Source of the DNA: Arthonia radiata
Lineage: Eukaryota > Ascomycota > Arthoniomycetes > Arthoniales > Arthoniaceae
Direction of reading: 5' to 3'
Length of the DNA: 64,000 nucleotides
Assembly (NCBI GenBank): GCA_002989075.1
Contig: PSQN01000011.1
Coordinates: 463,131-527,130 of the forward strand
Shown: one piece after another, positions 25,384-46,061 of the stretch
How the letters are laid out: each line of letters starts with the position of its first letter
Position numbering within the stretch: the first letter of the stretch is position 1
Notes under the pieces: model-generated
The model's database searches: none
Told to the model about the DNA's origin: nothing
Seen by the model: only the letters and a program-made list of their open reading frames with translations
Program-made: the position numbers and the translations under genes

Positions 25384-27168
25384 CTAATAGCTCTTAGGCG
25401 GGGCACCGTAGGAGCCTGGCGCAGAGGCACCCTTACCACCCGCAGACCCATAACCCGAAGCCCCAGCATTCGAACCCCCCTGTACACCACCGCTCACACC
25501 ACCAGATGCGTGGCCAGAAGTCGAGCCGTTTGCTCCACCAGACACACCGCCATTGGCACCGCCCTTCGCGCCGCCAGAAACACCTCCAGCCGCACCACCT
25601 TGCGCGCCACCTGCGGCACCTGTGCCATACCCGCCCGGCGCAGCAGATCCATGACCCGTGCTATCCTTGTCACCGCCGGCAGAGCCATAGGAGCCAGGCT
25701 TGGGGAATGGGAGGTCGGGCATAGAGCCGCCAATTGGGAATGTCCAGCCCTGGCCTTTGCTAGGCATGTAGGAGCCAGGTGCTGAGGGAGTTTTACCTGG
25801 GCCGTAGACTGGCGGGGACGAGGCGCCTGGAGCAGAGGGGGCGGGTGCCGAGCCGGCTGGAGCTGAAGGCTTCGAAGGCGAGCCGTAACCGCCTTGTGCG
25901 GCGGAAGAGGCTGCAGGTGCTGAAGGCACTGGAGCTGAGGGCTTGGAAGGCGAACCGTAACCGCCGGGTGCGGCGGAAGAGGCTGCAGGTGCTGAAGGCG
26001 CTGGAGCTTGGGGCACCGAAGCTGTGTATGCGGCGGGCACATTGTACGCAGAGACCGCTGCACTGCTGCTCATTGAGACCGTCACGCTGGCGGAGGAGGC
26101 GGGAACGAAAGTGGTGCCTGACGGGACGAAGCCGCTTGGGCATGGTGTTGAAATGGATGAGGCTGCCGGTGCAGATGGTGAAGGAGCGTATGGGCCTGGT
26201 GCGGCCGCAGAGGTTGCGAGAGTTGTTGCTGGTGCTGCGGGTGGGAGGTCAGCAGCTGGAGCACCGGGAGCGCCGGGAGCAGCTGGGGCACCTGAATCAA
26301 ACTTGTCAGGGAGCGTTCTCTGAGATGTTGGAAGATTTGGATACTCACCATAGCCACCAGGAGCAGCTCCTCCGCCAATGCCTGCACCGCCCTTGCCGCC
26401 ACCGTTCAAACCGCCTCCAACACCGCCATTCGCACCACCTTGTGCACCGCCTCCGATACCAGCGTTTGCTCCTCCATTGACGCCGCCGGCTGCACCACCA
26501 GCCACACCTCCTTGAGCGCCGCCGTTGAGGCCTCCATTGGCTCCTCCGTTGACACCACCACCAACTCCGCCGTTCACACCACCCTGAGCGCCTCCAGAGA
26601 CTCCACCGCCAACTCCTCCATTGGCGCCACCTTTCGCTCCACCGTTGACGCCTCCGTTGACACCACCTTGAGCGCCTCCGTTGACTCCTGCACCGACGCC
26701 ACCGTTGACGCCGCCATTGACACCGCCTTGCGCTCCACCATTGACACCTCCGTTGACACCTCCGTTGACACCACCTTGTGCACCTCCAGCAACGCCGCCA
26801 TTAACCCCGCCTTGCGCGCCGCCGTTGACACCACCTTGAGCTCCTCCATTCACGCCTCCACTGACTCCTCCATTGACGCCGCCGTTCACGCCGCCATTTG
26901 CTGAGCCTCCAGCACCGGCATTGGCGCCTCCATTCACGCCTCCGTTGGCAGCGCCGCCAGCACCGGCAGCAGCGCCGCCTTGAGCGCCACCAGAGACGCC
27001 ACCAGAGACACCTCCGCCGACACCAGCGTTGGCACCACCAGCTGCTGAGCCTCCGAGAGCACCAGAGTGCTTACCGAAGTTGGCAGCTTGGACGTCTTGA
27101 GGGAGGGCGCGAGCCGAGGCAAGGGCAGCCGTATAGGCGAGGACGACAGAGACCTTTGAGAAATGCAT
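25384..27168 (-). CDS. Secreted Gly/Ala/Asn-rich repeat protein
   Basis: The open frame is 594 codons. Residues 1-19 form a signal peptide ([19 protein letters not shown]). Residues of about 40-265 are near-continuous repeats of the [11 protein letters not shown] type. Residues of about 280-480 are a Pro/Ala/Ser-rich linker with repeated [10 protein letters not shown] and [10 protein letters not shown] blocks. The tail returns to GGAxGG repeats and ends GAPPKSY. It is probably an extracellular or cell-wall structural protein; I know of no enzyme signature in it. The region at 26292-26348 is the only non-repetitive patch (19 codons). It has a GTGAGT donor, a CTGAC branch site and a TTCAG acceptor, so it is a likely 57-nt in-frame intron. 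Splicing would join GGYG to APAAPGAPG and give 575 residues. Function is inferred only from composition and the signal peptide. Confidence 0.75.
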
Positions 27169-27429
27169 GATTGCTTGATGATGATGATGATGAAGTTGTA
27201 GACGTCGAGTGGACCGAGTAGATTGAGACTAAGAGTAGATCAAATGGGATAGAGTGTGCTGTAGATTGATAGCGATGACTCTTCGAACAGGCCGGCTGTG
27301 GTCCCAGATGAAGATGAGAATGTAATTAAGGTGTAGCGAGTGCGTCGAGAACGAGAGATATTAGGCTGTGAAGCGAGTGTAGACGAACGAGATGTGTTGA
27401 TCGAGTTGTTCTGCAGCGGGGTGAGGACG

Positions 27430-34582: not shown

Positions 34583-34599
34583 CTAGATGAGCAGAGAGT

Positions 34600-35450
34600 T
34601 TGTTGGACGCGAAGTATTGAAGAATAATATAAAGAGCGAATATATTGTGCATTAATTGCTTTTTGAAACCTCTATCTGAGCATCGCCGGGAAACTCTTAC
34701 TAAACTTAGTGGACCTAGAAAGGCAGTAGACAAGGGTATTTGCTGTAAGTATAATATTAGATATCTGAGACTCTCCTGGACGCAGAGTATTGCGTAACAA
34801 TATGAAGAGCAAATCGATTGGGCACGAAATAGTCTTTAAGATCTTATTTGAGTAACGCGGCGGAGCCGCTATTGAAATGGTGTAAAGAAGAAGGGAAGAC
34901 ACCTTTGGTATTCGCTGTGAGTGTAGTACTGGATATCTGCGAGGTTGTTGGACGCAAAGTATTGAGTAATAACATGAAGAGCAAATCCATTGTGCACGAA
35001 CTGGTCTTTGAAGCTGCTATATCAGCAACGCGAGGGAGCAATTTCTGAATTTGGTAGAACTGGAAAGGCAGAGGGGAAGGGTAGTTGCTGTGAGTGTAAT
35101 ATTGGGTATCCATGAGTTTACTGGACGCGAAGTATTGGGTAGTAATGTGAAGAGCAAATATACTGGGCTTGAATCAGTCTTTGAGATCTTTATTTGAGCA
35201 ACACGGCAGAAACGCTCCTAGAAAGTCGCGAAATAGAAAGAAAGATAACACTGCTAGTGGCTGTCACTGTAGTATTGAGAATATGCGAGTTTGGTGGACG
35301 CGAGTTTTACTCAACAGCAAGTCCATTGGATACAAATTAGGATTGAACATTTCGATTATAAGCAACGCCGCGGAATCGCTCGTGAATGGACGTGGATTGG
35401 AAACGAATATGACCATGGCAGTTGCTGTGAATGTGAATACGGAGTGTATG
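34600..35450. repeat. 173-bp tandem repeat, about five diverged units
   Basis: The phrase TGGACGC recurs at 34604, 34777, 34949, 35122 and 35295, spaced 173, 172, 173 and 173 bp. Each unit also carries a GAAGAGCAAAT..ATTG segment, a GAGCAACGCGGCGGA-like segment and a GCTGTGAGTGTA..ATTG segment in the same order. Units differ by many point changes, so the array is old, but the length is nearly invariant. The unit is not coding: frames change between units. Confidence 0.85.
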
Positions 35451-35752: not shown

Positions 35753-37393
35753 TCAACACCCCCTCCCTCCCCCCCTCACCGAACTCTCCACCGGCGCTGC
35801 CCGCCCACTCCACGCCGCATCAGCAGCGTCCAACTCGTCCACCTCCAGCCTCACCACCCCACTCCCCCAGCGCTGCTCTCGAACCAGTCTTCGTCCACCC
35901 GCACGAACCCCCTGGTCCGCTCTCAGGCCGACCAACGCCGCAGCAGCACCGGCAACGTCAGGGTTCGCGCGTGCGCGCACCGGCAACCCCGCCACCACGC
36001 GCCGCAGCTCCTCCACGTCCACGTCATCGGGGACGCTGCTGTTAGCGACCTCGCGCGCTGTGGGAGCAGCGCCGTAACGCGCCAGTGTTGGCACGTCTGG
36101 CGCGTTTTGCGGGCGCGCTGGGGGGTGTGAGGGCAGGAGGGCGTCCCAGGGCATGTACCCCGGCTGTGGCGGGGCGACGCTGGGGAGGAGCGGGCGGGCG
36201 TATTGGAGGTTAGGCTGGGAACGGTGCGAGGGGATGAGTCGCCCGTCCATGCCTATTCGTTGACCCTCGTCCTCCTCCGAGAAGTGCTCTGAAACGGCAC
36301 GGGGACGCGAGAGCCGACGACGAGCTGCGGCGTTGAAGTTCGTCGGGGACGTGACCGCCAACTCCCCGTCCTCCTCCTCAGAAGTAGTGTCGAAGACACT
36401 ATCCCGCTCTGGCGACGCCTCCGGCCGCGCACCAGCAGCACCCGCACCACTCTTCTCCTTCAACGCCGCCTGCAGCCTCAACGTCTCCTCCTTGCGCCTA
36501 ATCTTGCGCTCCACCATCGTCTTGATCTCACCGAACCTCCGCTCCCACACCGCGGCCTCAATCCCCAGCTTGGGGAACAGCTCCTCGAACTGCTCGAACT
36601 GCCCCTGCTGCTTGATCCGCTCGCGGCGGATGTTGTCGCCGCTGCGATACAGACCTTGCTCGACTGCTGACTGGCGGCGGCAGCGGAGACAGCGCTTGGT
36701 GCCTTTGCCCTCGACTGTGAGCATCAGGAAGGCGGGCTGACCGATCTTGCACCCGTTGCAGGTGTGCAGGGCCTGGGCTGCGGCACCTTGTGGCATTGCT
36801 GCGGGCTGGGAGGTCGTGGGAGCAGCAGGGGCGGTGGGTGCGGGTGGGGGTTGAGGGACGCGAGAGGAGTGGCGGTGGGCGGGCGTGGGCGAGGACGGGG
36901 GGTCCCGAGGCTGGGGAGGTGCTGGCATACGGCTTGAGCCCGGAGCAGTATGGAAGGTGCCCATTCGAGGGACACGGGACGGCGTGAGCGTACTCTCGGG
37001 GCCTTGAGGAGGGATCATGCCTCGGCAGGCGCTCGAGTTTGGCGTGGTTCGGAAGAAGCCCATAGGCGGGAGACGCGATGGTGTGGTTGCTGCTGCGTTT
37101 GCTGGAGCAGCAGGACGAGCTGGGGCTGGGACCTCTTCGAGGTCAATGTGCTGGCTGCGATGTGGAGCAGCCAAAGAAGAGCCAGGGACAGGATCCGACA
37201 TGGTCAGATCTACGACCGGAGCTGGGACGCGCGGGGTTGGGACTGGTTCGGGTCCAACCTCGCATCCGACCTCCGCGCTGGTGCGTTCAGCTGCACCAGC
37301 AAAGCCCTCAGCATGGATGCTTGAAGGTTTATCGTGAGCCGGGGGAGGCGACGTCGGAGATTTTGTGTCACGTTGAGAGTTGTCAGGATCCAT
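35753..37393 (-). CDS. Pro-rich disordered protein with a CX2C-X19-CX2C zinc knuckle
   Basis: One frame of 546 residues starts at a clear ATG. Residues 1-205 are Pro/Ala/Ser-rich and include VVDLTMSD (61-67), a classic SUMO-interaction pattern. They also hold a duplicated motif, PSRLPPMGFFRTTPNSS (105-121) and PSRVPRMGTFHTAPGSS (138-154). Cys212, Cys215, Cys235 and Cys238 form two CX2C pairs, a likely zinc-binding ribbon. Residues of about 252-320 are a charged helical segment (RRERIKQQGQFEQFEELF). The C-terminal half is again disordered. I do not recognise the family. The combination suggests a nuclear regulatory or scaffold protein, but nothing in the sequence proves it. Confidence 0.65.
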   Translation of the reverse strand: MDPDNSQRDTKSPTSPPPAHDKPSSIHAEGFAGAAERTSAEVGCEVGPEPVPTPRVPAPVVDLTMSDPVPGSSLAAPHRSQHIDLEEVPAPARPAAPANAAATTPSRLPPMGFFRTTPNSSACRGMIPPQGPESTLTPSRVPRMGTFHTAPGSSRMPAPPQPRDPPSSPTPAHRHSSRVPQPPPAPTAPAAPTTSQPAAMPQGAAAQALHTCNGCKIGQPAFLMLTVEGKGTKRCLRCRRQSAVEQGLYRSGDNIRRERIKQQGQFEQFEELFPKLGIEAAVWERRFGEIKTMVERKIRRKEETLRLQAALKEKSGAGAAGARPEASPERDSVFDTTSEEEDGELAVTSPTNFNAAARRRLSRPRAVSEHFSEEDEGQRIGMDGRLIPSHRSQPNLQYARPLLPSVAPPQPGYMPWDALLPSHPPARPQNAPDVPTLARYGAAPTAREVANSSVPDDVDVEELRRVVAGLPVRARANPDVAGAAAALVGLRADQGVRAGGRRLVREQRWGSGVVRLEVDELDAADAAWSGRAAPVESSVRGGGRGC

Positions 37394-39266
37394 CTCTGCT
37401 GTGAGTCGGCGAGCTAGTGAAGAGCGTGTAGGTGGGTGTCTTGAGGGTGATTCGAGTTGAAATTGAGCGATGCCGGCGAATTGCTGTTGTAAATAGGAGT
37501 TTCAGACCAATTTGTGCTTGTTGTGGGCTGCTGTTGAAGATGGACGCGGACGCAACAAAATCTGAGCTGGTTTTGCAGGTTGAGGTAAGAGGTGCAATGT
37601 TTTGCCCGTGGACGTACTAGGCAACGCTAGTGAAGGCGTTTGCAAAGCACTAACCTCTTTAGTCGTCCCATGTCGACTGGAAGAACAGTGCAAAATGAGT
37701 GACTCGAGAAAAACAAATCAACGGCGCAGAGTCCGAACATCGTGCGACTTGTGCCAATTTGTCGTGCGACATTGCGCTGGTTTTCAGCCTCGAGCTTGTA
37801 CAGCTCTCTTGAGGACGTCGTTGCGTAGGTGAAAGCGATGCGTAGCCCACGATTCCCGCTGATCTTGTCATTGCTGTCAGGTCAAGACAGAACTAAGGAT
37901 CAGAGAAATCGTAGTAACAGCGGTTTCTTGGTCCAGCCGCAACATGAAACAGAGGAGATCTGTAGCGATGATCATCATCGTTGACTGCCATTATGATTAG
38001 CCGGAGCCGAGTCAACCACCCACTTGGAGTCTGGATATACCTTTGTGTCGATGATCTCCAGAGAGACCGTGGAAACTTGGTCGTCGGAGATGTCGATTGG
38101 AGTCAATGAACTCCGTTGCAGACCAGCACAGCGGAAAGAAAAGTCCTGGATGGTGCAAGCAGAACCAGTCATCGAAGACGGACATGGGCGGCGCTCTTCG
38201 TTATATATATACGACACAAGATTGTTTAGGGCCGATGTCTGTTGAAGTCAACATGTCGATGAGGGACAATGGAGGAAGATGAAGAATGAAGGAAGATGGT
38301 GGAGGAAGAGGAAGAGGAAGAGAAGAGGAGGGAGGGGAGGTATATAAATCAATACGCGGAGGAGAAGGCGAAGGGGTGACGGGCGGAGGGAGCAAGAGCG
38401 TAAGAGAGCGAGGCAGAGGGAACCGAGAGAAAGAGAGATGGAATAGCAAGAGGACACGACGTGTTTTCATGAGGCATTGGAAGGCTGCGAGTGAGCAAAC
38501 AAGATAATACAAACACAGTAAGCATATCCCTGTCTCTCAGCGATTGGCCACAGATCTCTGACATGAAACAGGCGGTCAGGCTATCGGGTGGCTGCAGATA
38601 CCCGAGACTTAAGTACTGGTGATCGAAAGAGTAGGATTAGCCGTTACTGTGCAAATCCAGCCCAAGACTCGAGCGATGTGTGAGCTATAGGTGTCGAAGC
38701 GAACTCCTGTTCGTCAAGTCATCAGGGTCTGTGGTGGAGAAGAGGAAACTCTACGTGTCCGGGTACACAGCGTCTATTACGTTGGAAGACGTTATGGATG
38801 TGAACGCAGCGTCGGATAAGCAGTGTGATGCTTAATGACCTTGCGTTTTAGCATTCAGGTGAGCGGCCTAATGGCCATAGACGGAGAGCTTTGTGAATAT
38901 CGAGACATGGCGTCAGCTGAAGCATTCTCGAGTCTTGCGTAGCAACGTACCTTGTCGAGTGAATCTCGATGAGCGCTGCCCGGACACGCGGTACCCGTTC
39001 TGATGTTAAATATACTTCGTTCTATGGTCACAGCAAGATCGCCGGCCCAGTGACTTTTCAGCAGACCGCCAGAAAAGAAGGGGGAACAAGATCGGGAGTT
39101 TGACAAGTTCCTAGAATGTGCTCTCGTATTGACCAGACTCTTACAAATTCCAATAATGCTATCAACACGAATCGAATGCTTCAGACTCTTACAAAACACC
39201 TCTAAAGCTGATATGATCTCTTAAAAGTCACTCGGTACTTTCAGTACTACAAAGAATGGGGTCATG
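37394..39266. other. Intergenic, no supported gene
   Basis: This 1.9 kb stretch has only short overlapping frames without domain or splice support. It contains a purine-rich tract at 38,278-38,440 interrupted by a TATA-like GTATATAAATC at 38,340. The rest is of ordinary composition. Confidence 0.4.
38278..38440 (+). repeat. Purine-rich (GA) low-complexity tract
   Basis: The plus strand is almost entirely G and A (GGAAGAGGAAGAGG-like) for about 160 bp. The TATA-like GGTATATAAATC lies in the middle, at about 38,339-38,350. Such tracts can act as nucleosome-poor promoter DNA, but no gene starts convincingly on either side. Confidence 0.5.
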
Positions 39267-41159
39267 CTACGACGACTCGCCGGTCGGAATCCTCATACCA
39301 TGATTACCTTTGTAAGAGCTCGGTTGTGGTGGTGTCCAGCCAAGCATGACTTTCTCCTTCTGACCCTCTGCAAGGCGATAGATCTCTACACCAAGGGGCC
39401 GGCAAGTCCCCTTCATAAGAGCGTCGTCATCCCAATTCCAGGAGCTCAGATCACCGCCTGGGCATGCAGACAGGGCGCAGAGAAGGTCAATCTCAGCGAA
39501 GAACTCGATGAAGTCTTCGCCGCTACCTGGTGGAACGCCTCCGACTGTGTGATTCTGGCCGGACGGTTGTGAGAAATTGCTGTTGTAGCCTTGGCTCTGG
39601 CTAAACGCTGGATTAATATTGGGGTTCATGTTCGCCTGCGCTGCTCCAAACTCGTAAGGGTTCTGTGCCATTGGATTGATGTTGGTGCTGCCTGCGGACT
39701 GGCCTTGAGCGCCAACGGCGGGACTTGGAGCCATGAAATATCGACCGTCGTTGTCCAGGCCAGTGACTTGGAAGACATTCAGTACGTCGTGAACATCTGA
39801 TTCAGACAGTCCGTGAGGGAGGACCGCTCGCACGAGGTTGGAGTGGCAGCTGTAATTATAATCCTCGCCATCGCCGGGCTCGTCGGCCTCCTCGTCGTTG
39901 TTGTCAGCATCTTCCTGGGCCCACTGATTGGCATTCGGAACTGGACGAGGCCTTCCACTTGTAAGCAACTTTCTGACATAGGGGTCGCAGCGCGTGCCAA
40001 GAAGATCATGACAGCGACCGCCACATCGATCAACGCCATAACCAGCAAGACTGTCCGCAGTCACTGTAACTAAAGGCCGCATGTACGGAAGACAAGACCA
40101 AAGTCGGTCGAAGACACGGACGTGGCTGGCATGCAGCTGGCGTGTGCGAGCTGCCCAGAAGCGCTCTCGCGGATTGTGCTGATTCCAAATGTTGAGGTCG
40201 CCAACCTGTGGACCTTGAGGCGTCGTAATGCGAACAACCTGGCCGGCTGAGACCTTGAAAGAGATTCCAGATCGTGACGGACAGGTGAAACTCTGTAGTT
40301 TCACTCGAGCTCCTGTTGTGTGTGCAGTAGCTGCAATGCGAGTATAGAGTATGCGATCGACGTGAAGGGGGGATTCAGCGGGTGCCGTGTAAGCTGGGTG
40401 AGGGTGATAGGGGTATGGGGGATGACGGACGGATTGAGGTGGCATGTAGGGCACAGTTGCGACACCATCCGGTGCTGCCAGGGACGGGCGTCCACTGTGG
40501 GGAGCATCGCTCTTGCGCTTTCTCCCAGCGTTTTGCCTTATCGGGATGGAATAGCGTGCCTTGTAACCAGCGAGCCATCCATTGCTGAAGACAGGAGCCG
40601 GCTTGCCCTTGTAGCACTCTAGCTGCGGCCAGATATTCTTGGCTGTGTCCCTGATCACGTCACCAGTCACGGTGACGCCTTGCTCTTCCAATCGCATATG
40701 CTCGGCATACAATGCCTCCTCAAGCGCGGGGAAGTCTGACGCGCGATGTTTGCGCGTGTTTTCGTTAGATAAAGAGACATCATCGAGATCGGGTCTATCG
40801 CTCGCGAGGATTAAGGAGATGGTGCTCTGGGACATGCGAACTCCATACTTGGCTTCAAACCAATCGATGAGGTGCTTCTGTGTCGGTCGCGGGTCACTGC
40901 GAGCTTGGGCTCGAAGTGCGGCGCGTTGAGCGTCGGTATAGGCATTGCGTTTCTTGGGAGTTTTGTCATTGATGCGATTTGGGGTATCTTGAGTGTTGTC
41001 TAGGTCGTTGTCGTGATCCTGCTCGGCGTCGTGCTGATCTTGGTCGGTGTCATCAATGATCTCGGGCTCAGCATCGTTGCCAGGGGCTTGCTGTTGGTGA
41101 TGGTGAGGTTGGACGCTGCCTGCGAGGGAGGCGAGAAGCGAGGACTCGGTGGTGTTCAT
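39267..41159 (-). CDS. CENP-B/Tc5-type HTH fused to DUF1989 domain
   Basis: One uninterrupted frame of 630 residues from the ATG at 41159. Residues 1-65 are acidic and Gln/His-rich. Residues of about 70-122 form an N-terminal CENP-B/Psq-like HTH (LIDWFEAKYG...SQSTISLIL). Residues of about 145-203 form a second, Tc5/CENP-B-type HTH (LEEQGVTVTGDVIRDTAK then VFSNGWLAGYKARY), the paired DNA-binding module of pogo/Tc5 transposases. Residues of about 300-596 match the DUF1989 (urea-carboxylase-associated) family: a VSAGQVVRI start, GDLNIWN, DRCGGRC and GTRCDPY cysteines, LNVFQVTGLDNDGRY, an insert rich in Asn/Gln, then FAEIDLLCALSACPGGD. No DDE nuclease domain is present, so this is a host gene, not a transposon. 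It may couple DNA binding to a metabolite-sensing or catalytic fold, which is my inference. It is divergent to atp12. Confidence 0.85.
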   Translation of the reverse strand: MNTTESSLLASLAGSVQPHHHQQQAPGNDAEPEIIDDTDQDQHDAEQDHDNDLDNTQDTPNRINDKTPKKRNAYTDAQRAALRAQARSDPRPTQKHLIDWFEAKYGVRMSQSTISLILASDRPDLDDVSLSNENTRKHRASDFPALEEALYAEHMRLEEQGVTVTGDVIRDTAKNIWPQLECYKGKPAPVFSNGWLAGYKARYSIPIRQNAGRKRKSDAPHSGRPSLAAPDGVATVPYMPPQSVRHPPYPYHPHPAYTAPAESPLHVDRILYTRIAATAHTTGARVKLQSFTCPSRSGISFKVSAGQVVRITTPQGPQVGDLNIWNQHNPRERFWAARTRQLHASHVRVFDRLWSCLPYMRPLVTVTADSLAGYGVDRCGGRCHDLLGTRCDPYVRKLLTSGRPRPVPNANQWAQEDADNNDEEADEPGDGEDYNYSCHSNLVRAVLPHGLSESDVHDVLNVFQVTGLDNDGRYFMAPSPAVGAQGQSAGSTNINPMAQNPYEFGAAQANMNPNINPAFSQSQGYNSNFSQPSGQNHTVGGVPPGSGEDFIEFFAEIDLLCALSACPGGDLSSWNWDDDALMKGTCRPLGVEIYRLAEGQKEKVMLGWTPPQPSSYKGNHGMRIPTGESS

Positions 41160-41347
41160 AGCTGTTGTGAGGTGGTGGATATGTATCGATGTCAGGGGTG
41201 AGCTAATCGAACGCGATGGTCGGAATGTTTTGGTGGGTGCGGATATTATTGCTCGCAGCCTCGTCGATGCCTTACTTAGGTAATACTGTCCGAAAATCGC
41301 CGTCCCTGGCAGATTGTTCAAAATAGGGGCTAGATACCGCTAACATG

Positions 41348-41394
41348 ACCCCCAATCTTGACCAATAGCGCCCCAAAATCGACCATTGGGGGGT
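41348..41394. promoter_or_regulatory. CCAAT-containing inverted repeat in a divergent promoter
   Basis: The arms are ACCCCCAAT (41348-41356) and ATTGGGGGGT (41385-41394), with a further ACCAAT at 41361-41366 between them. The element lies in the 376 bp separating the start codons of the HTH-DUF1989 gene (minus) and atp12 (plus). CCAAT boxes are bound by the fungal HAP complex, which regulates mitochondrial genes, so a role for atp12 is reasonable. The symmetry may serve both directions. Confidence 0.45.
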
Positions 41395-41535
41395 ACAAAG
41401 CCCCTAGCGCGCTGTTGCAGTGGGTGGTTTAATGTTTGCTTAGGTAGGCTTGTGTCGATGTCTCCATTGATGCATTGATCATTCTTACCTGTGAATCTCC
41501 TTCAGCTTGCTTGATTCACTGTATAAGTCCGCATC

Positions 41536-42685
41536 ATGTCTCTTACGCGTCCAACATATAGATGTCTTCGGTGTACTGCCAGACTCCTCCATACCTCCAC
41601 CGCAAGCGCAGCCAACCCTGTGCCACATCCACCTGCACCGGGGCCGCCTCCCAAACCACCCACTGCCGACCCTACCTTTCCCGATGATCGTCTCGCCCGC
41701 AAGCGCAAGCAAGCGGAAAAACTCAAGCTCGGGCAGCAACTGAGAGCTGATGCCACGAAACCGGCAGCAAGTCTACGAAAGCGTTTCTGGAGGAATGTCT
41801 CCATCCAAGACAGTGACGGTAGGTGTACAATCGACGGGCAAATCACGACCGATCAGGAGCTGATGTATCGTCGCAGAGGGTCTCAATGTCATGCTTGACT
41901 CTAAGCCTGTGCGGACGGCATCAAAGGCAGTGTTGGCTGTCCCTCATTCCAAACCACAGCTTGCGGTAGCCATCGCTCACGAATGGGAGTCACTGGTCTC
42001 AGCACATCAAGCGCTCAAACAACACTATATACCCCTCACGGCATTGACGTCGAGAGCGATCGATGTTGAGAACGCAGACCAAAACAATGACACATCAATC
42101 AGAGACTCGATCATGCAAATGCTCATGGGATATCTGCAAACAGATACACTATTATGCTGGGCGCCAGAGAAGAACCTGCACGATCCAAACCAGAGCGCAA
42201 ACGCCAACATGGACGAACGGGCGTCTGGCTTTGCACCTGCCACAGAGACTCTGCGATCTCGTCAAATAGAGATAGCCAAACCCATCATTTCGTACCTGAC
42301 AAGCCAAATCTGGCCTGGCGTGGAGCTCCAGCCTTCCCTCGAAGCCTCCAGTATCATGCCTTCCCCGCAGCCTGAGCTCACACAGCAGGTCGTTCAAGGC
42401 TGGGTCCAAGGTCTTCCTGCGTTTGAGCTCGCTGGCCTGGAGCGCGCTGTTATTGCAAGCAAGTCTTTGTGCATAGGCGCACGACTTCTCTATCAATGGA
42501 GTCCGCACTTCAACAACGACATCGAAACTGCTCCTTTCGATATTGAGCAGGCCGCGGAAGCGTCGAGCTTGGAGGTCTTGTGGCAGACTCGAATGTGGGG
42601 TGAAGTTGAAGACACTCATGATGTGGCCAAAGAAGACTTGAGAAGACAGCTGGGGAGTGTTATTATGCTCGTACACTCCCATTAA
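41536..42685 (+). CDS. atp12: Mitochondrial F1-ATPase assembly chaperone Atp12
   Basis: Exon 1 is 41536-41818 and exon 2 is 41877-42685, giving 363 residues. The 58-nt intron has a GTAGGT donor and a CGCAG acceptor in phase 1, and splicing gives IQDSD-E-GLNVMLDSKPVRT. Atp12 binds the free F1 alpha subunit in the matrix and hands it on for alpha3beta3 assembly. Residues 1-25 are Arg/Ser/Thr-rich (MSLTRPTYRCLRCTARLLHT), a mitochondrial presequence. A Pro-rich linker follows. The ATP12 domain starts at RFWRNV (about 84), has the conserved DSKPVRT block, AIAHEW, and the family's terminal signature MWGEVEDTHDVAKEDLRRQ. Length agrees with fungal orthologues. The gene is divergent to the HTH-DUF1989 gene. 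Confidence 0.95.
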
Positions 42686-43640
42686 CAAGTTGCAGATGTG
42701 TGGTCATGTAAGAGCCGTCACGTGGAATGAAACACCCACCTAAATGCCTGAGTCATTCTCAACTTCGCTCTTGTCATTACGTTGATCTTCTTGGGAACGC
42801 AGCTGCTCGACGTTGCAAGTAAGCTATGTCCGGCCCACACTGCGGCGAAGGCAGCTTGCCAATTGCGCCGAAGGATGCGAGGCATGCATCAGGAACCTTC
42901 AGTACTCCGAAATCCAGGTATCATGCAATATCATCTTCCGTTCATCTATGTCGAGCTATGAAGAGAAAGAAGCCAGCCAATCAATTACTACGTTTGGTGC
43001 TCAACACGATTAAGTTGACGCTTGGTTCGACACTTTCAGCTCCGCACACGAGTACAGACTTGATATCATGAGCTAACGGCCTCGCATGTTCAGAAGGACC
43101 GTCTTATACCCGGTGGTTGACAGCTCATACGGAGTAAGTGCTTAATAGCTCAAAAGTCCAAGCCTCGGCTGATACGCAAGCCTTTCTAACGCAAGCCTCA
43201 TCAGGCTGCGAAGCACAGCCAGGTGCTTGCCTCTTTTCGAAAAGACGATGGCTTCCGGTTAAATCTTAAGCACCACCAAATCCATTCAAGGAATAAGTGT
43301 TGTATACCGACAAGAAGCTTCTCACGACCAGCCAAGCTTTTATGTCGTCGAGAGATCGTTATGAGGCTTAAATGGTATATCCAAGCTCTCAATCTCGGAC
43401 GACTGCACATTGCTATGCAAGGCTCTCGGTCTCGCCTCATTCATTGATTGTAACCAGATCTGCTCCTACCAAGCAGCAAGGGAAGGGAACATTGATAATC
43501 TGAATTTTCGTGTCCAGCGCCAAGCAGGAAGTTGCAGATATTCCTGAGCCTGTCTGGGGAACCCATGGTTTCAGCAAGCCTCCGATGCATTGTTTCATAT
43601 TATCTATTTACGATTAATGCCGCCATCTTCGAAAACGACG
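42686..43640. other. Intergenic, no supported gene
   Basis: About 950 bp with only short unsupported frames on both strands. It ends where the peroxidase-like coding remnant begins. Confidence 0.4.
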
Positions 43641-43668
43641 TTGTAGAAACTTTGACCCCTGTTCACTG

Positions 43669-44018
43669 GTGTCGATCTCTCCGATCTGACGGGCGGTGTG
43701 AACAATGCTCAGATGCTGGCCGAGGGCAATAACTTTGCCTGTTTTGCTTTCCATCTTAACATTCAGTCAGGTCCGGATATCATGCAGAGTCTGAACCAGG
43801 ATCTGCAAAAGGGCTCGGATCTGCTGAACCAAGCGCTGGGCGGCGTGATCCCGAGTCTCGACTGCCCGCAGCTGGAGCACATTGACAATCGGAACTTGGC
43901 CAATAACTTCGGACAGTTCCCGGGCGTGGCGGAGCTGAACTCTGATGGAACGTACGGCAGTAGCGTAGGCTCGGTCGTGCTGAACAGCCTGGGGCAACTG
44001 ACCGGGTCGTTCTTGTAG
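43669..44018 (+). pseudogene. Remnant of a secreted, possibly Peroxidase_2-like, gene
   Basis: An open segment reads VDLSDLTGGVNNAQMLAEGN and continues to LGQLTGSFL before a stop at 44018. The block PSLDCPQLEHIDNRNLANNF followed by GQFPG resembles the C-terminal CPQL..ID...FPG pattern of fungal heme-haloperoxidase (Peroxidase_2) proteins. A preceding frame from 43564 could encode a signal-like start (MVSASLRCIVSYYLFTINAA) but is in another frame, and I found no convincing intron joining them. The N-terminal heme-binding Pro-Cys-Pro region is not seen. The best reading is a 3' remnant of a host gene, with the family assignment weak. Confidence 0.3.
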
Positions 44019-44083
44019 GGCGGAGCATAGACGTGACGACCGCTCATGTCATTACGAAAAAACATAAACTGTACAGAACATAA

Positions 44084-45451
44084 TCATGACTTGACCGCGA
44101 CCCAGTGGCTTGGCCGGTATTTATATTGCAGCATGCTCGTGCTATCCTGTATATACCCCGTCTCTCTATCCTCGCTCGGCTCTTCGTGCCTCACGATCTT
44201 GAACCCGGAGTCCGCGACCAGCGCTAAGATCTCGTCATCGCTGAGCTCGAAGCTGCCTTGTGAGCCGATCTTCTGGTTCTTTAGCTTCTCCTGTGTACTA
44301 CTGCGATTGTCTGTCTCACCCTCCTCACCAGCACGACCGTCTTCGCCAGCCCTCTTGCTCTGCTGCGGTCCACCATCGAAATGCCAAAGCAAAGGCCCGA
44401 CATTAATCCACAAGCCCCCCGCTCTCAGCACCTTTCGCACCGTCTCCACATACCTCAGAAAGTCCGGCGCGGTGTCAATGAAGAACACAGTCACCACCGC
44501 GTCGAACGCCCCTTCGCTCGTCTCACCGCCATATACTTCGCAAAAATTCCCACTGCTCATGCTCATACTTCCTGCATCCCTACTCACCCCCTCCCCAACA
44601 TCTTCACCCCCCGCATCCTCCCAACCCCGCCCCGCCCGAGCCTCCGCCAACACCTCACTAGCCACCACATCCGGCACCCCCACCCCCCTCAACTGATCCG
44701 CCCTCCTCACCCGATTCGAGAAATTTCCACACCACGGATACAACCCCCACTGCTCCCTCCGGGTACTATGATTTAAAACCAGATCCGACGCGAAGAGCTC
44801 ATGATAGCTCAGCTCATTGCCTTCAGCGTGATAGCCCCGCGCGGCCAGTTCCAGAACGAGCCGGCCGAGTCCGGCACCGGGAATGAGGATTTTGGCATTG
44901 AGGCGGGAGAAATCGGTGAGTGCTGTGAAGACTGGGAGGTAGCTGGCGGACCGCTCGGAGTGCCCGAGGATGGACCAGTCGCGTGTTAGTTGGGTGAGCG
45001 TGGAGTGGGCTTTGGAGCGGTCGAGGGGGGTGGGGGTGGTGAGCCAGTTAGCCTTCCCTTGGTGGACAGCTTCCGTTTCGGTACCGTCGGTGTCGTGGTT
45101 GTCAATGATAAGCGACGACTGAGACGTAGGGGCCGAAAGACCGAAGCTTTCAGCAGCCACCTCGCAGATACGCTCAGCGATCTCAGCGTTCGCGTCGATG
45201 CAGTCGTCGACGGCGGTGAGGGTGTCGAGGTAGTTTATCGGTGGGGCGGCGAGGCGCTGCCAGTGCGCTTGGGGGAGCGCGTAGAAGGCTTGACGGCGCG
45301 CGTGCGTGGTGGTGAGGTGGGTGTGGGTTCGGTAGTGGAAGAAGGACGAGAGGACGGAGTGGACGTGGGCGCGCTCGTGGGGGTCGGAGAGAGGGTCGAA
45401 CTGGTCGCTTGTGGGAGTTGAAGTGGTTTGATCACTGTTATCTAACGCCAT
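44084..45451 (-). CDS. Carnosine N-methyltransferase family protein
   Basis: This is 455 residues in one frame, matching the N2227-like/CARNMT1 family (yeast YNL092W). The family methylates the imidazole of carnosine or related His dipeptides using S-adenosylmethionine. Residues of about 26-100 are the N-terminal helical region (HSVLSSFFHYRTH). The SAM-binding motif is KILIPGAGLGRLVLELAARG (about 187-206), followed by EGNELSYHELFASDLVLN, a hallmark of this family. AVVTVFFIDTAPDFLRYVET and the GGLWINVGPLLWHF strand complete the fold. Two acidic or Ser/Gly-rich inserts (about 270-305 and 375-405) are longer than usual but lie in loops. The C-terminus keeps the expected YKYRPSHWVAVK. It is convergent with the peroxidase-like remnant. 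Confidence 0.92.
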   Translation of the reverse strand: MALDNSDQTTSTPTSDQFDPLSDPHERAHVHSVLSSFFHYRTHTHLTTTHARRQAFYALPQAHWQRLAAPPINYLDTLTAVDDCIDANAEIAERICEVAAESFGLSAPTSQSSLIIDNHDTDGTETEAVHQGKANWLTTPTPLDRSKAHSTLTQLTRDWSILGHSERSASYLPVFTALTDFSRLNAKILIPGAGLGRLVLELAARGYHAEGNELSYHELFASDLVLNHSTRREQWGLYPWCGNFSNRVRRADQLRGVGVPDVVASEVLAEARAGRGWEDAGGEDVGEGVSRDAGSMSMSSGNFCEVYGGETSEGAFDAVVTVFFIDTAPDFLRYVETVRKVLRAGGLWINVGPLLWHFDGGPQQSKRAGEDGRAGEEGETDNRSSTQEKLKNQKIGSQGSFELSDDEILALVADSGFKIVRHEEPSEDRETGYIQDSTSMLQYKYRPSHWVAVKS

Positions 45452-46061
45452 AGTTTTATGCTCATAGATTTTGCAATGCTGGAGTGTTTAGATGTGCTTG
45501 TAATGAAGTGGCTTTCTGTATACCAATTTGTATGGTGTGACATGTTTAGCATTTGAGGCGTATAATTTGAGCCGGTGTAAGATGGCATCGATTGCACTCA
45601 GTATGTAACGAGACGACTCCCTTTATTTAGTACATAGCATGATATTAGATGTCAAAAGCAGAGCATGTAAAGATTGGACGATGGCACGATTTCTTGACCA
45701 CGCTTGACGTCTCTTCTCTCGGCCAAAGTGACCAGCGTTTTGTCATCGCACCCCTGAGTAGCCTGAATTTCGAGGCGTCAAAGACCAGCTTTCTATGCTT
45801 GAGCGTTCTGCTGGCACGCGGCTGAAAGTAAAAGTGGCCCACCACCTTAATTTCTACCAGCTTTCAAGCCCGATATCTGAGCCAAATCTTGGTTAATTCG
45901 AATATAAATAAATTGTATTAGTGGCTGGGTACCTAACTGTCTTCGATCAACTCTCAAAGTGAGCTCTTCGTGGTTCTGGAAGCTACTTTTGCCATTCAAA
46001 AATATCAAGCAGAGCTAACAGGCCTACTACAAGCTGCCAATTGCGGTGCTCATACGGAATC
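45452..46061. promoter_or_regulatory. Divergent promoter region
   Basis: This is 610 bp between the methyltransferase start (minus) and the PAC4-like start (plus). Some AT-rich patches occur, for example TATAAATAAATTGTATTAG near 45,904. No gene seen. Confidence 0.35.

What the first reader, a model, noticed from the sequence alone, without database searches (positions are those of the whole stretch)
39267..41159. Transposase-type DNA-binding module fused to a DUF1989 domain in one continuous frame
The N-terminal half carries the paired HTH of Tc5/pogo/CENP-B proteins without a DDE nuclease. The C-terminal half carries a complete DUF1989 domain, interrupted only by an Asn/Gln-rich insert. DUF1989 proteins are otherwise known mainly as stand-alone proteins linked to urea-carboxylase loci. 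A single 630-codon frame with no plausible intron at the join argues against an annotation artefact. This could be a domesticated DNA-binding domain that acquired a small-molecule or catalytic domain, i.e. a metabolite-responsive regulator. I know of no description of such a protein.
Basis: partly seen in the sequence, partly recalled or inferred. Interest (0 to 1): 0.8.

Follow-up and report, generated by a model that had tools for sequence, protein, structure and literature searches.

The report
Transposase DNA-binder fused to metabolic enzyme
A fungal gene joins the DNA-gripping part of a jumping-gene enzyme to a complete domain that in bacteria is a separate, probably zinc-binding protein, so one protein may link a small metabolite to gene or chromosome control.

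Summary
On the minus strand, window 41159-39267 is one 630-codon frame. It carries both halves of an Abp1/CENP-B/pogo-type DNA-binding region (residues 70-126 and 143-206) and a whole DUF1989 domain (~256-630); no DDE nuclease was found. No splice donor of the tested types lies at the join. The DUF1989 part is 59-62% identical to five aligned stand-alone proteobacterial proteins. It keeps 69 of 69 residues that are fixed in 18 close and at least 95% conserved in 20 further bacterial relatives, including three presumed zinc cysteines, so it is probably a working enzyme or ligand domain. It lies in a clade apart from the urea-carboxylase-associated type; close bacterial relatives often sit near amino-acid-type transporters and GntR or LysR regulators. 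It has two inserts, not one. Best reading: a transposase-capture protein in which a metabolite-handling zinc domain stands in place of the nuclease, giving a metabolite-coupled DNA-binding protein. DNA binding, activity and ligand are inferred. No fungal genomes could be searched, so age and spread are unknown. My paper searches found no description.

The parts
39267..41159 (-). Whole coding frame, 630 codons plus stop (69.4 kDa)
40953..41159 (-). Residues 1-69: acidic, Asn/Gln/Asp-rich, probably disordered N-terminal tail (16 D+E, charge -13.5)
40782..40952 (-). Residues 70-126: HTH_ABP1_N (PF18107), first helix-turn-helix
   Evidence: E 1.4e-15; three helices 76-88, 94-105, 111-119 in the model
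40542..40733 (-). Residues 143-206: HTH_Tnp_Tc5 (PF03221), second helix-turn-helix
   Evidence: E 6.4e-12; helices 144-159, 166-179, 193-203; 45 of 133 residues identical to Abp1 1iuf over residues 70-203
40395..40541 (-). Residues 207-255: Pro/Arg-rich linker with a basic run RKRK at 213-216 (possible nuclear localisation signal); contains Met239
   Evidence: no splice donor of the tested types between codons 164 and 366
39270..40394 (-). Residues 256-630: DUF1989 domain, homologous over nearly its whole length to ~280-290 aa stand-alone bacterial proteins
39987..39989 (-). C391 (GTRC): first presumed zinc cysteine
   Evidence: Fixed in 18/18 close and 4/4 remote and at least 95% of 20 intermediate bacterial homologues; three-Cys zinc site of DUF1989 from PMC12560246 (passages)
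39846..39848 (-). C438 (SCHSN): second presumed zinc cysteine
39462..39464 (-). C566 (SACPGGD): third presumed zinc cysteine
39870..39959 (-). Residues 401-430: acidic insert absent from the aligned bacterial homologues
39516..39716 (-). Residues 482-548: Asn/Gln/Gly/Ser-rich insert absent from the aligned bacterial homologues (18 N+Q of 67)
41162..41275 (-). Possible 5' UTR intron: donor GTAAGG at 41275, acceptor CAACAG just before the ATG, 114 nt
   Evidence: sequence pattern only, unproven

Best explanation
A single-gene transposase-capture protein. The paired helix-turn-helix DNA-binding region of a pogo (Lemi/Abp1-type) transposase is joined, in place of its DDE nuclease, to a bacterial-type zinc DUF1989 domain. 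Shown by sequence: one frame, the complete domains, and every one of the 69 conserved DUF1989 residues kept. Inferred: the protein enters the nucleus (RKRK motif) and binds specific DNA through the two HTHs, as Abp1 and CENP-B do. The DUF1989 part forms dimers or higher oligomers, as modelled for TMAO demethylase, and so pairs the DNA-binding arms. It also binds, and probably converts, a small amino-acid-like or amidine-type compound. Occupancy or turnover would then change DNA binding or partner recruitment through the acidic and Asn/Gln-rich segments. In effect it would be a 'trigger enzyme', a catalytic domain wired to a DNA-binding one.
For: Domains and lack of DDE. Foldseek on the model ranks Abp1 DBD 1iuf first (prob 0.99, E 1.4e-3) and CENP-B-DNA 1hlv second (prob 0.98, E 0.03). 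One frame, no splice donor of the tested types at the join. This frame has the highest codon score of the three forward frames in 25 of 30 forty-codon stretches over codons 1-620. 69 of 69 columns fixed in 18 close and at least 95% conserved in 20 further bacterial sequences are identical in the window. The domain groups with the close bacterial clade (98/89, 100/100), apart from two proteins that pass the UAAP2 cut-off. In bacteria the same protein is encoded within one gene of a GntR or LysR regulator in 9 of 16 close-clade loci for which at least one neighbour was annotated or scanned (GntR: L005, L008, L010, L023, L024, L027; LysR: L007, L029, L030) and near amino-acid-type ABC transporter genes in 7 of 16. 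The gene lies in non-RIP sequence although 1-24 kb of the window is heavily RIP-like, as expected of a host gene rather than a repeated element. DUF1989 as a metal domain that takes part in oligomerisation: PMC12560246 (passages).
Against: No DNA-binding, ligand, localisation or expression data. The second HTH segment is slightly acidic (charge -1.4), so DNA binding is not assured. The DUF1989 models were poor (mean pLDDT 36.4 and 35.5), so zinc-site geometry was not checked in this protein, and no Foldseek match reached E 0.001. The substrate is unknown. The fusion has been seen in one genome only. GntR neighbours L023, L024 and L027 are close kin, hence not independent, and for several loci only one neighbour was scanned. 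Codon scores: another forward frame is higher in 3 of 30 stretches (261-300, 381-420, 461-500) and ties in 2; an antisense frame is higher in 5 (341-380, 361-400, 381-420, 541-580, 561-600); GC3 dips to 0.35 at 261-300, where the DUF1989 part begins.
Confidence: 0.45

Rival explanations
1. Primarily an enzyme. The DUF1989 domain does its ordinary chemistry and the captured HTH region only keeps it in the nucleus or on chromatin, without ligand-controlled regulation.
For: All 69 conserved residues kept; 59-62% identity to five bacterial stand-alone proteins.
Against: Both HTHs score well above cut-off and the linker has an NLS-like run; a full pair of DNA-binding domains is more than targeting needs. 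Neither argument is decisive.
Confidence: 0.22
2. A CENP-B/Abp1-like architectural chromatin protein in which DUF1989 serves only as a dimerisation or oligomerisation domain, as the C-terminal domain of CENP-B does.
For: Same DNA-binding architecture as Abp1; DUF1989 forms a significant part of the modelled dimer interface of TMAO demethylase (PMC12560246 passages).
Against: A purely structural role does not readily explain retention of all 69 conserved positions, including the three cysteines, against ~40% divergence overall.
Confidence: 0.15
3. Two products: the DUF1989 protein is made separately from Met239 (internal promoter, alternative transcript or leaky start), and the long frame is mostly or wholly an annotation-type illusion.
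For: Met239 lies just upstream of where homology to the bacterial proteins starts (residue ~256); codon score and GC3 dip at codons 261-300.
Against: No stop, and no splice donor of the tested types between codons 164 and 366; the only looser donor with acceptors inside this part (codon 366 to 407 or 413) would delete C391. HTH region and DUF1989 are in the same frame, and a 690-codon open frame is far beyond chance. A transcript starting at the HTH end must read into DUF1989 unless it ends inside the linker.
Confidence: 0.1
4. Recent, non-functional fusion or assembly join restricted to this genome.
For: Only one genome was available; no fungal collection could be searched.
Against: Both halves are intact with no stops or Ns; among the 25 longest of 236 inverted pairs in 37.5-43.5 kb none has one arm on each side of the gene. 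The DUF1989 half sits outside its bacterial sister clade with an end branch of 0.59-0.66, so its sequence has long diverged under constraint; this dates the domain, not the fusion.
Confidence: 0.08

Closest known systems
S. pombe Abp1 / Cbh1 / Cbh2 (CENP-B homologues)
   Same: HTH_ABP1_N plus HTH_Tnp_Tc5 pair; 45 of 133 residues identical to the Abp1 DNA-binding structure 1iuf
   Different: PMC10799480 lists these with PF03184 (DDE_1) and PF18107 (section read); here no DDE region, DUF1989 instead
Lemi-type pogo transposases
   Same: HTH_ABP1_N + HTH_Tnp_Tc5 is a double DNA-binding motif reported for Lemi (PMC7386202 passages)
   Different: No DDE nuclease found; no flanking inverted repeats stood out
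Vertebrate pogo-derived fusions POGK, POGZ, CENPB
   Same: Transposase DNA-binding domain joined to an unrelated domain
   Different: These retain the DDE domain, and the added parts are KRAB, zinc-finger or CENP-B dimerisation domains (PMC7386202 passages)
F-box genes with a captured Tc1/Mariner HTH
   Same: A transposase HTH domain captured by a host gene family (PMC12062965, abstract start in the listing)
   Different: Different HTH family and F-box partner; DUF1989, CENP-B, Tc5 and ABP1 do not occur in that paper's main text
Stand-alone proteobacterial DUF1989 proteins (Caballeronia, Paraburkholderia, Brenneria, Azospirillum, Klebsiella plasmids)
   Same: 59-62% identity for five in the alignment; 53-57% and about 52-55% for the best 20 plasmid records by tblastn; same conserved residues
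   Different: No DNA-binding domain, no acidic or Asn/Gln-rich inserts
Urea-amidolyase-associated UAAP1/UAAP2, i.e. carboxyguanidine deiminase type
   Same: DUF1989 family and the three universal cysteines (rows L012 and L013 pass the UAAP2 cut-off)
   Different: Remote (25-35% identity for the remote rows); window far below both NCBIfam cut-offs; separate branch. That UAAP1/2 equal CgdA/B is recalled, apart from the common PF09347 tree described in PMC11410670 (passages)
TMAO demethylase (Tdm)
   Same: A multi-domain protein with a DUF1989 zinc domain that takes part in oligomerisation (PMC12560246 passages)
   Different: Fused to GCV_T, not to a DNA-binding domain

Membership tests
Pogo/CENP-B-type DNA-binding proteins (Abp1 group) | HTH_ABP1_N followed by HTH_Tnp_Tc5 at the N-terminus | tested here: met
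   Both above Pfam cut-off; 1iuf E 1.6e-18
Pogo/CENP-B-type DNA-binding proteins (Abp1 group) | Binds DNA sequence-specifically | not testable with these tools
   Needs EMSA, DAP-seq or ChIP
Active pogo transposase/transposon | DDE nuclease domain | tested here: not met
   No DDE family in the protein (limit E 10) nor in seven flanking or antisense frames (limit E 0.1)
Active pogo transposase/transposon | Terminal inverted repeats around the gene | tested here: inconclusive
   None of the 25 longest of 236 inverted pairs in 37.5-43.5 kb has one arm on each side of the gene; the other 211 were not shown, and short repeats would not stand out
DUF1989 family (PF09347) | Profile match above cut-off and the three zinc cysteines | tested here: met
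   152.6 bits against 27; C391, C438, C566
DUF1989 family (PF09347) | Metal bound | not testable with these tools
   Model too poor to check geometry; needs metal analysis or a structure
Urea-carboxylase-associated proteins UAAP1/UAAP2 (carboxyguanidine deiminase type) | Passing the UAAP1 or UAAP2 model cut-off, or grouping with such proteins | tested here: not met
   26.2 and 32.2 bits against cut-offs 205.95 and 284.7; grouped away from L012 and L013, which pass the UAAP2 cut-off with 338.4 and 332.3 bits
Host-transposase fusion (transposase capture) | Transposase-type DNA-binding domain in one frame with an unrelated domain | tested here: met
Host-transposase fusion (transposase capture) | Conserved across species (persisted fusion) | not testable with these tools
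   No fungal genome collection; own genome not held
Trigger enzyme / metabolite-responsive regulator | Enzyme or ligand state alters DNA binding or transcription | not testable with these tools
   Inference only

The most novel reading that the evidence does not exclude
A eukaryotic metabolite-gated DNA-binding protein built from a captured transposase DNA-binding region and a zinc enzyme domain of bacterial origin. The fungus would have fused into one chain what bacteria often keep as neighbours, a DUF1989 protein and a GntR or LysR regulator, so that turnover or binding of an amino-acid-like compound directly sets occupancy on DNA.
Probability: 0.3. Interest if true: 0.78.

Novelty: new variant of a known kind. 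Interest (0 to 1): 0.55.

Why it matters
Transposase capture is a known route to new proteins. In the papers I looked at, the pogo-derived vertebrate genes keep the nuclease region, and three of them add repressor, zinc-finger or dimerisation parts (PMC7386202 passages); another HTH capture went to F-box genes (PMC12062965, listing). Here the nuclease is missing and a complete, tightly conserved metabolic-type domain stands in its place. If the inference holds, it would show how a eukaryote can make a metabolite-coupled regulator in one fusion step. It would also offer a handle on this uncharacterised DUF1989 clade, because regulated target genes would point to the ligand.

Tried and rejected
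Intron or annotation artefact at the join: rejected as far as sequence allows. No donor of the tested types lies between codons 164 and 366, and the one looser donor with acceptors (366 to 407 or 413) would delete part of the conserved core including C391. Non-GT donors were not tested. One in-phase 54-nt candidate lies inside the first HTH (donor at codon 104, acceptor near 122); it failed the looser scan's criteria and would break that domain.

Insert regions as unspliced introns: no donor of the tested types starts at or just before 401-430 or 482-548.

Urea-carboxylase-associated filing: rejected.

Viral-contig relatives: the DUF1989 query found none. The HTH query gave one locus, L006, with 30% identity over a short stretch; the contig looks phage-like by eye (frames), and it was set aside as spurious.

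Structure prediction: the full-length model is usable only for the HTH part (mean pLDDT 36.4) and the DUF1989-only model is poor (35.5). Neither is used as evidence for the DUF1989 fold, which rests on 3di4. Foldseek on the full-length model gave no match with E at or below 0.001; the top two were still Abp1 and CENP-B.

Direction and age of a bacteria-to-fungus transfer: not settled. The window is sister to, not inside, the 18 close bacterial sequences, and no fungal or non-proteobacterial DUF1989 set was put in the trees. In 398 genomes of one phylum 71 had any match at E up to 0.001, and 10 had a match better than 1e-44, the centre genome among them. In 274 genomes of one class the only match at E up to 1e-40 was the centre genome itself.

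Rows dropped before counts: 48 loci gave a DUF1989 hit. Six that repeated an identical protein (L002, L005, L011, L014, L015, L016; duplicates confirmed) were left out of the conservation count, which used 18 close, 20 intermediate and 4 remote rows. The first tree drops identical sequences only (43 rows); the second also drops the remote rows (39 rows). No neighbour of L022 or L025 was scanned, hence 16 of 18 close-clade rows in the context counts; for L004, L023, L024 and L026-L030 only one neighbouring frame was scanned.

Full report
WHAT IS THERE. The minus strand of the window from 41159 to 39267 is a single frame of 630 codons plus stop; the stop-to-stop frame has 690 codons. First-order Markov sequences of 37501-45500 gave a longest open frame of 177 codons at the median and 340 at most in 300 trials. 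A codon model trained on six other long frames of the window (2882 codons, boundaries chosen by eye) scores this frame highest of the three forward frames in 25 of 30 forty-codon stretches over codons 1-620. It is lower in 3 (261-300, 381-420, 461-500) and tied in 2. An antisense frame scores higher in 5 stretches, and GC3 dips to 0.35 at 261-300. The codon evidence therefore supports one frame without being decisive at the join.

DOMAINS. Pfam finds HTH_ABP1_N at 70-126 (E 1.4e-15), HTH_Tnp_Tc5 at 143-206 (E 6.4e-12) and DUF1989 at 292-481 (E 1e-44), all above curated cut-offs, and lists no DDE nuclease (limit E 10). The PDB sequence search finds the DUF1989 structure 3di4 (6.5e-57; three collinear stretches within 259-621) and the DNA-binding domains of S. 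pombe Abp1, 1iuf (1.6e-18); 45 of 133 aligned residues are identical to Abp1. An AlphaFold model is usable only over the HTH part, where six helices appear, with ten-residue mean pLDDT of 57-79 over 71-120 and 141-200. Foldseek ranks 1iuf first (prob 0.99, E 1.4e-3) and the CENP-B-DNA complex 1hlv second (prob 0.98, E 0.03); no match reached E 0.001. HTH_ABP1_N plus HTH_Tnp_Tc5 is a double motif reported for Lemi-type pogo transposases (PMC7386202, passages).

ONE GENE. No splice donor of the strong classes exists between codons 150 and 620. With looser donors, the only one with a usable acceptor inside the frame downstream of the HTH region runs from codon 366 to 407 or 413 and would delete part of the conserved core with C391. 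Neither the linker nor the two inserts therefore looks like an ordinary unspliced intron; non-GT donors were not tested. A 54-nt in-phase candidate inside the first HTH (codons 104-122) did not pass the second scan. A plausible 5' UTR intron of 114 nt ends just before the ATG (pattern only). Met239 lies in the linker, so a shorter DUF1989 product cannot be excluded.

THE DUF1989 HALF. Homology to bacterial stand-alone proteins begins at about residue 256 and runs to about residue 621. Identity is 59-62% in the alignment to five proteins from Caballeronia, Paraburkholderia and Brenneria and 53-57% by tblastn. Two inserts are absent from these bacteria: 401-430 (acidic) and 482-548 (18 Asn/Gln of 67). 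In an alignment of 18 close, 20 intermediate and 4 remote bacterial sequences, 69 columns are fixed in the close set and at least 95% conserved in the intermediate set; the window is identical in 69 of 69. Of the 126 columns fixed in the close set alone it matches 109. C391, C438 and C566 are also fixed in all 4 remote sequences. PMC12560246 (passages) states that DUF1989 structures 3SIY, 3ORU and 3DI4 have zinc-binding cysteines, that in TMAO demethylase three cysteines form the zinc site, and that DUF1989 forms a significant part of the modelled dimer interface. That the window's cysteines are those three is my inference from the alignments.

WHERE IT BELONGS. In trees of 43 and 39 sequences the window groups with the 18 close proteobacterial proteins (98/89 and 100/100) as their sister, apart from the 20 intermediate ones. 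The first tree also holds four remote rows; two of them, L012 and L013, pass the UAAP2 cut-off (338.4 and 332.3 bits against 284.7), so the window's clade is separate from the urea-amidolyase-associated type. The window itself scores 26.2 (UAAP1) and 32.2 bits (UAAP2) against cut-offs of 205.95 and 284.7, and two close bacterial relatives score 43.7-43.9 and 55.6-56.0. The close clade is uncommon: 10 of 398 genomes in a phylum sample (match better than 1e-44, centre genome included), and in a class sample of 274 only the centre genome itself (E up to 1e-40). Among plasmids, 101 of 72,556 records match at E up to 1e-5, 41 of them Klebsiella. High identity with a patchy bacterial presence fits horizontal transfer, but no fungal set was available to test it.

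BACTERIAL CONTEXT. In 16 close-clade loci with at least one neighbour annotated or scanned, a GntR gene lies next to the DUF1989 gene in 6 (L005, L008, L010, L023, L024, L027; the last three are close kin) and a LysR gene within one gene in 3 (L007, L029, L030). Amino-acid-type ABC transporter genes are near it in 7 (L001, L002, L003, L005, L008, L009, L010; flanks of L023-L030 are too short to tell). Two Azospirillum plasmids, L007 and the extra locus L051, have a pyroglutamyl-peptidase gene next to it and a LysR gene beyond. L026 has a GGDEF gene and L028 a weak carboxyltransferase-domain frame. The Klebsiella plasmid L008 also carries PxpA, urea-amidolyase-type and biotin-carboxylase genes a few kilobases away. 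Of three plasmid examples of lower identity (38.8-43.1%), two have ectoine-type transporter and aminotransferase genes nearby and the third a PLP-dependent enzyme gene; record H6 had no annotation. The substrate is thus more likely an imported amino-acid-like compound than urea itself; this is guilt by association.

FUNGAL CONTEXT. No whole genome is held for the window, so that it is fungal is inferred from its genes and RIP-type block. Neighbours match Prp18, ATP12, carnosine N-methyltransferase, epoxide hydrolase and DUF4045. The first 24 kb have 28-36% GC with TpA/ApT 1.57-1.96 and a (CpA+TpG)/(ApC+GpT) ratio of 0.34-0.56, a strong RIP-type signature; the two 2-kb blocks holding the gene read 0.56-0.66 and 1.18-1.32. 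The gene is thus not a repeat-mutated element, and tblastn finds no second copy of either half in the window (next best E 1.4).

MECHANISM. Shown: architecture and intact domains. Inferred: nuclear entry (RKRK at 213-216), DNA binding by the two HTHs, oligomerisation and metal or ligand binding by DUF1989, and coupling of the two. The strongest clue is that a domain ~40% diverged overall has lost none of the 69 conserved residues, which argues for a kept chemical function. Enzyme-regulators ('trigger enzymes') are known; for filamentous fungi a PAPS reductase with transcription-activating ability, tested in yeast, has been reported (PMC4848566, abstract and start of the introduction). PutA is a recalled bacterial parallel.

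LITERATURE. Searches of 5.39 million open papers: DUF1989 with CENP-B 0; DUF1989 with words beginning 'fung' 0; DUF1989 alone 3; PF09347, carboxyguanidine deiminase or IPR018959 18, none about this fusion by title and abstract start; a six-term search on transposase domain fusions 0. The fungal host-TE fusion screen PMC10799480 names CENP-B/Abp1 but has no word beginning with 'DUF' in its main text (outline, passages and one section seen); its supplements could not be opened, so the fusion may be listed there. PMC12062965, a screen of eukaryotic TE-domain co-occurrence, has no mention of DUF1989, CENP-B, Tc5 or ABP1 in its main text (passages). Automated databases may well already hold this architecture; I could not look.

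VERDICT. A real, continuous domain combination that my searches did not find described, best filed as a new variant of transposase capture. It is moderately surprising and directly testable, with function inferred and taxonomic spread unknown.

Noticed in passing
window 1-24000: A block with 28-36% GC and a very strong RIP-type signature (TpA/ApT up to 1.96, CpA/TpG index down to 0.34), giving way near 24 kb to gene-rich sequence of about 50-60% GC; possibly heterochromatin next to genes.
   Followed up: partly
window 25384-27228 (-): Long repetitive Gly/Asn/Ala/Val-rich frame with tandem repeats of 12-84 bases, looks like a secreted or cell-wall-type protein close to the edge of the AT-rich block.
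   Followed up: no
window 34594-35159: Tandem array of 3.3 copies of a 173-base unit, 68% matches.
   Followed up: no
window 41340-41400: Upstream region between this gene and the divergent ATP12-like gene contains several CCAAT/ATTGG motifs (read directly); possibly a bidirectional promoter.
   Followed up: no
window 41417-41430 and 41653-41666: Perfect 14-nt inverted pair spanning the start region of the divergent ATP12-side frame.
   Followed up: no
window 35753-37501 (-): A 582-codon GC-rich frame (500-base windows up to 68% GC) with no Pfam match at E up to 0.01.
   Followed up: no
L008 4882-16771: A DUF1989 gene with amino-acid ABC transporter and GntR genes on a Klebsiella IncFIB plasmid, near PxpA, urea-amidolyase-type and biotin-carboxylase genes; 41 of the 101 matching plasmid records are Klebsiella. 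The one other enterobacterial plasmid opened (Enterobacter, L052) has a similar arrangement. Looks like an uncharacterised accessory catabolic cassette.
   Followed up: partly
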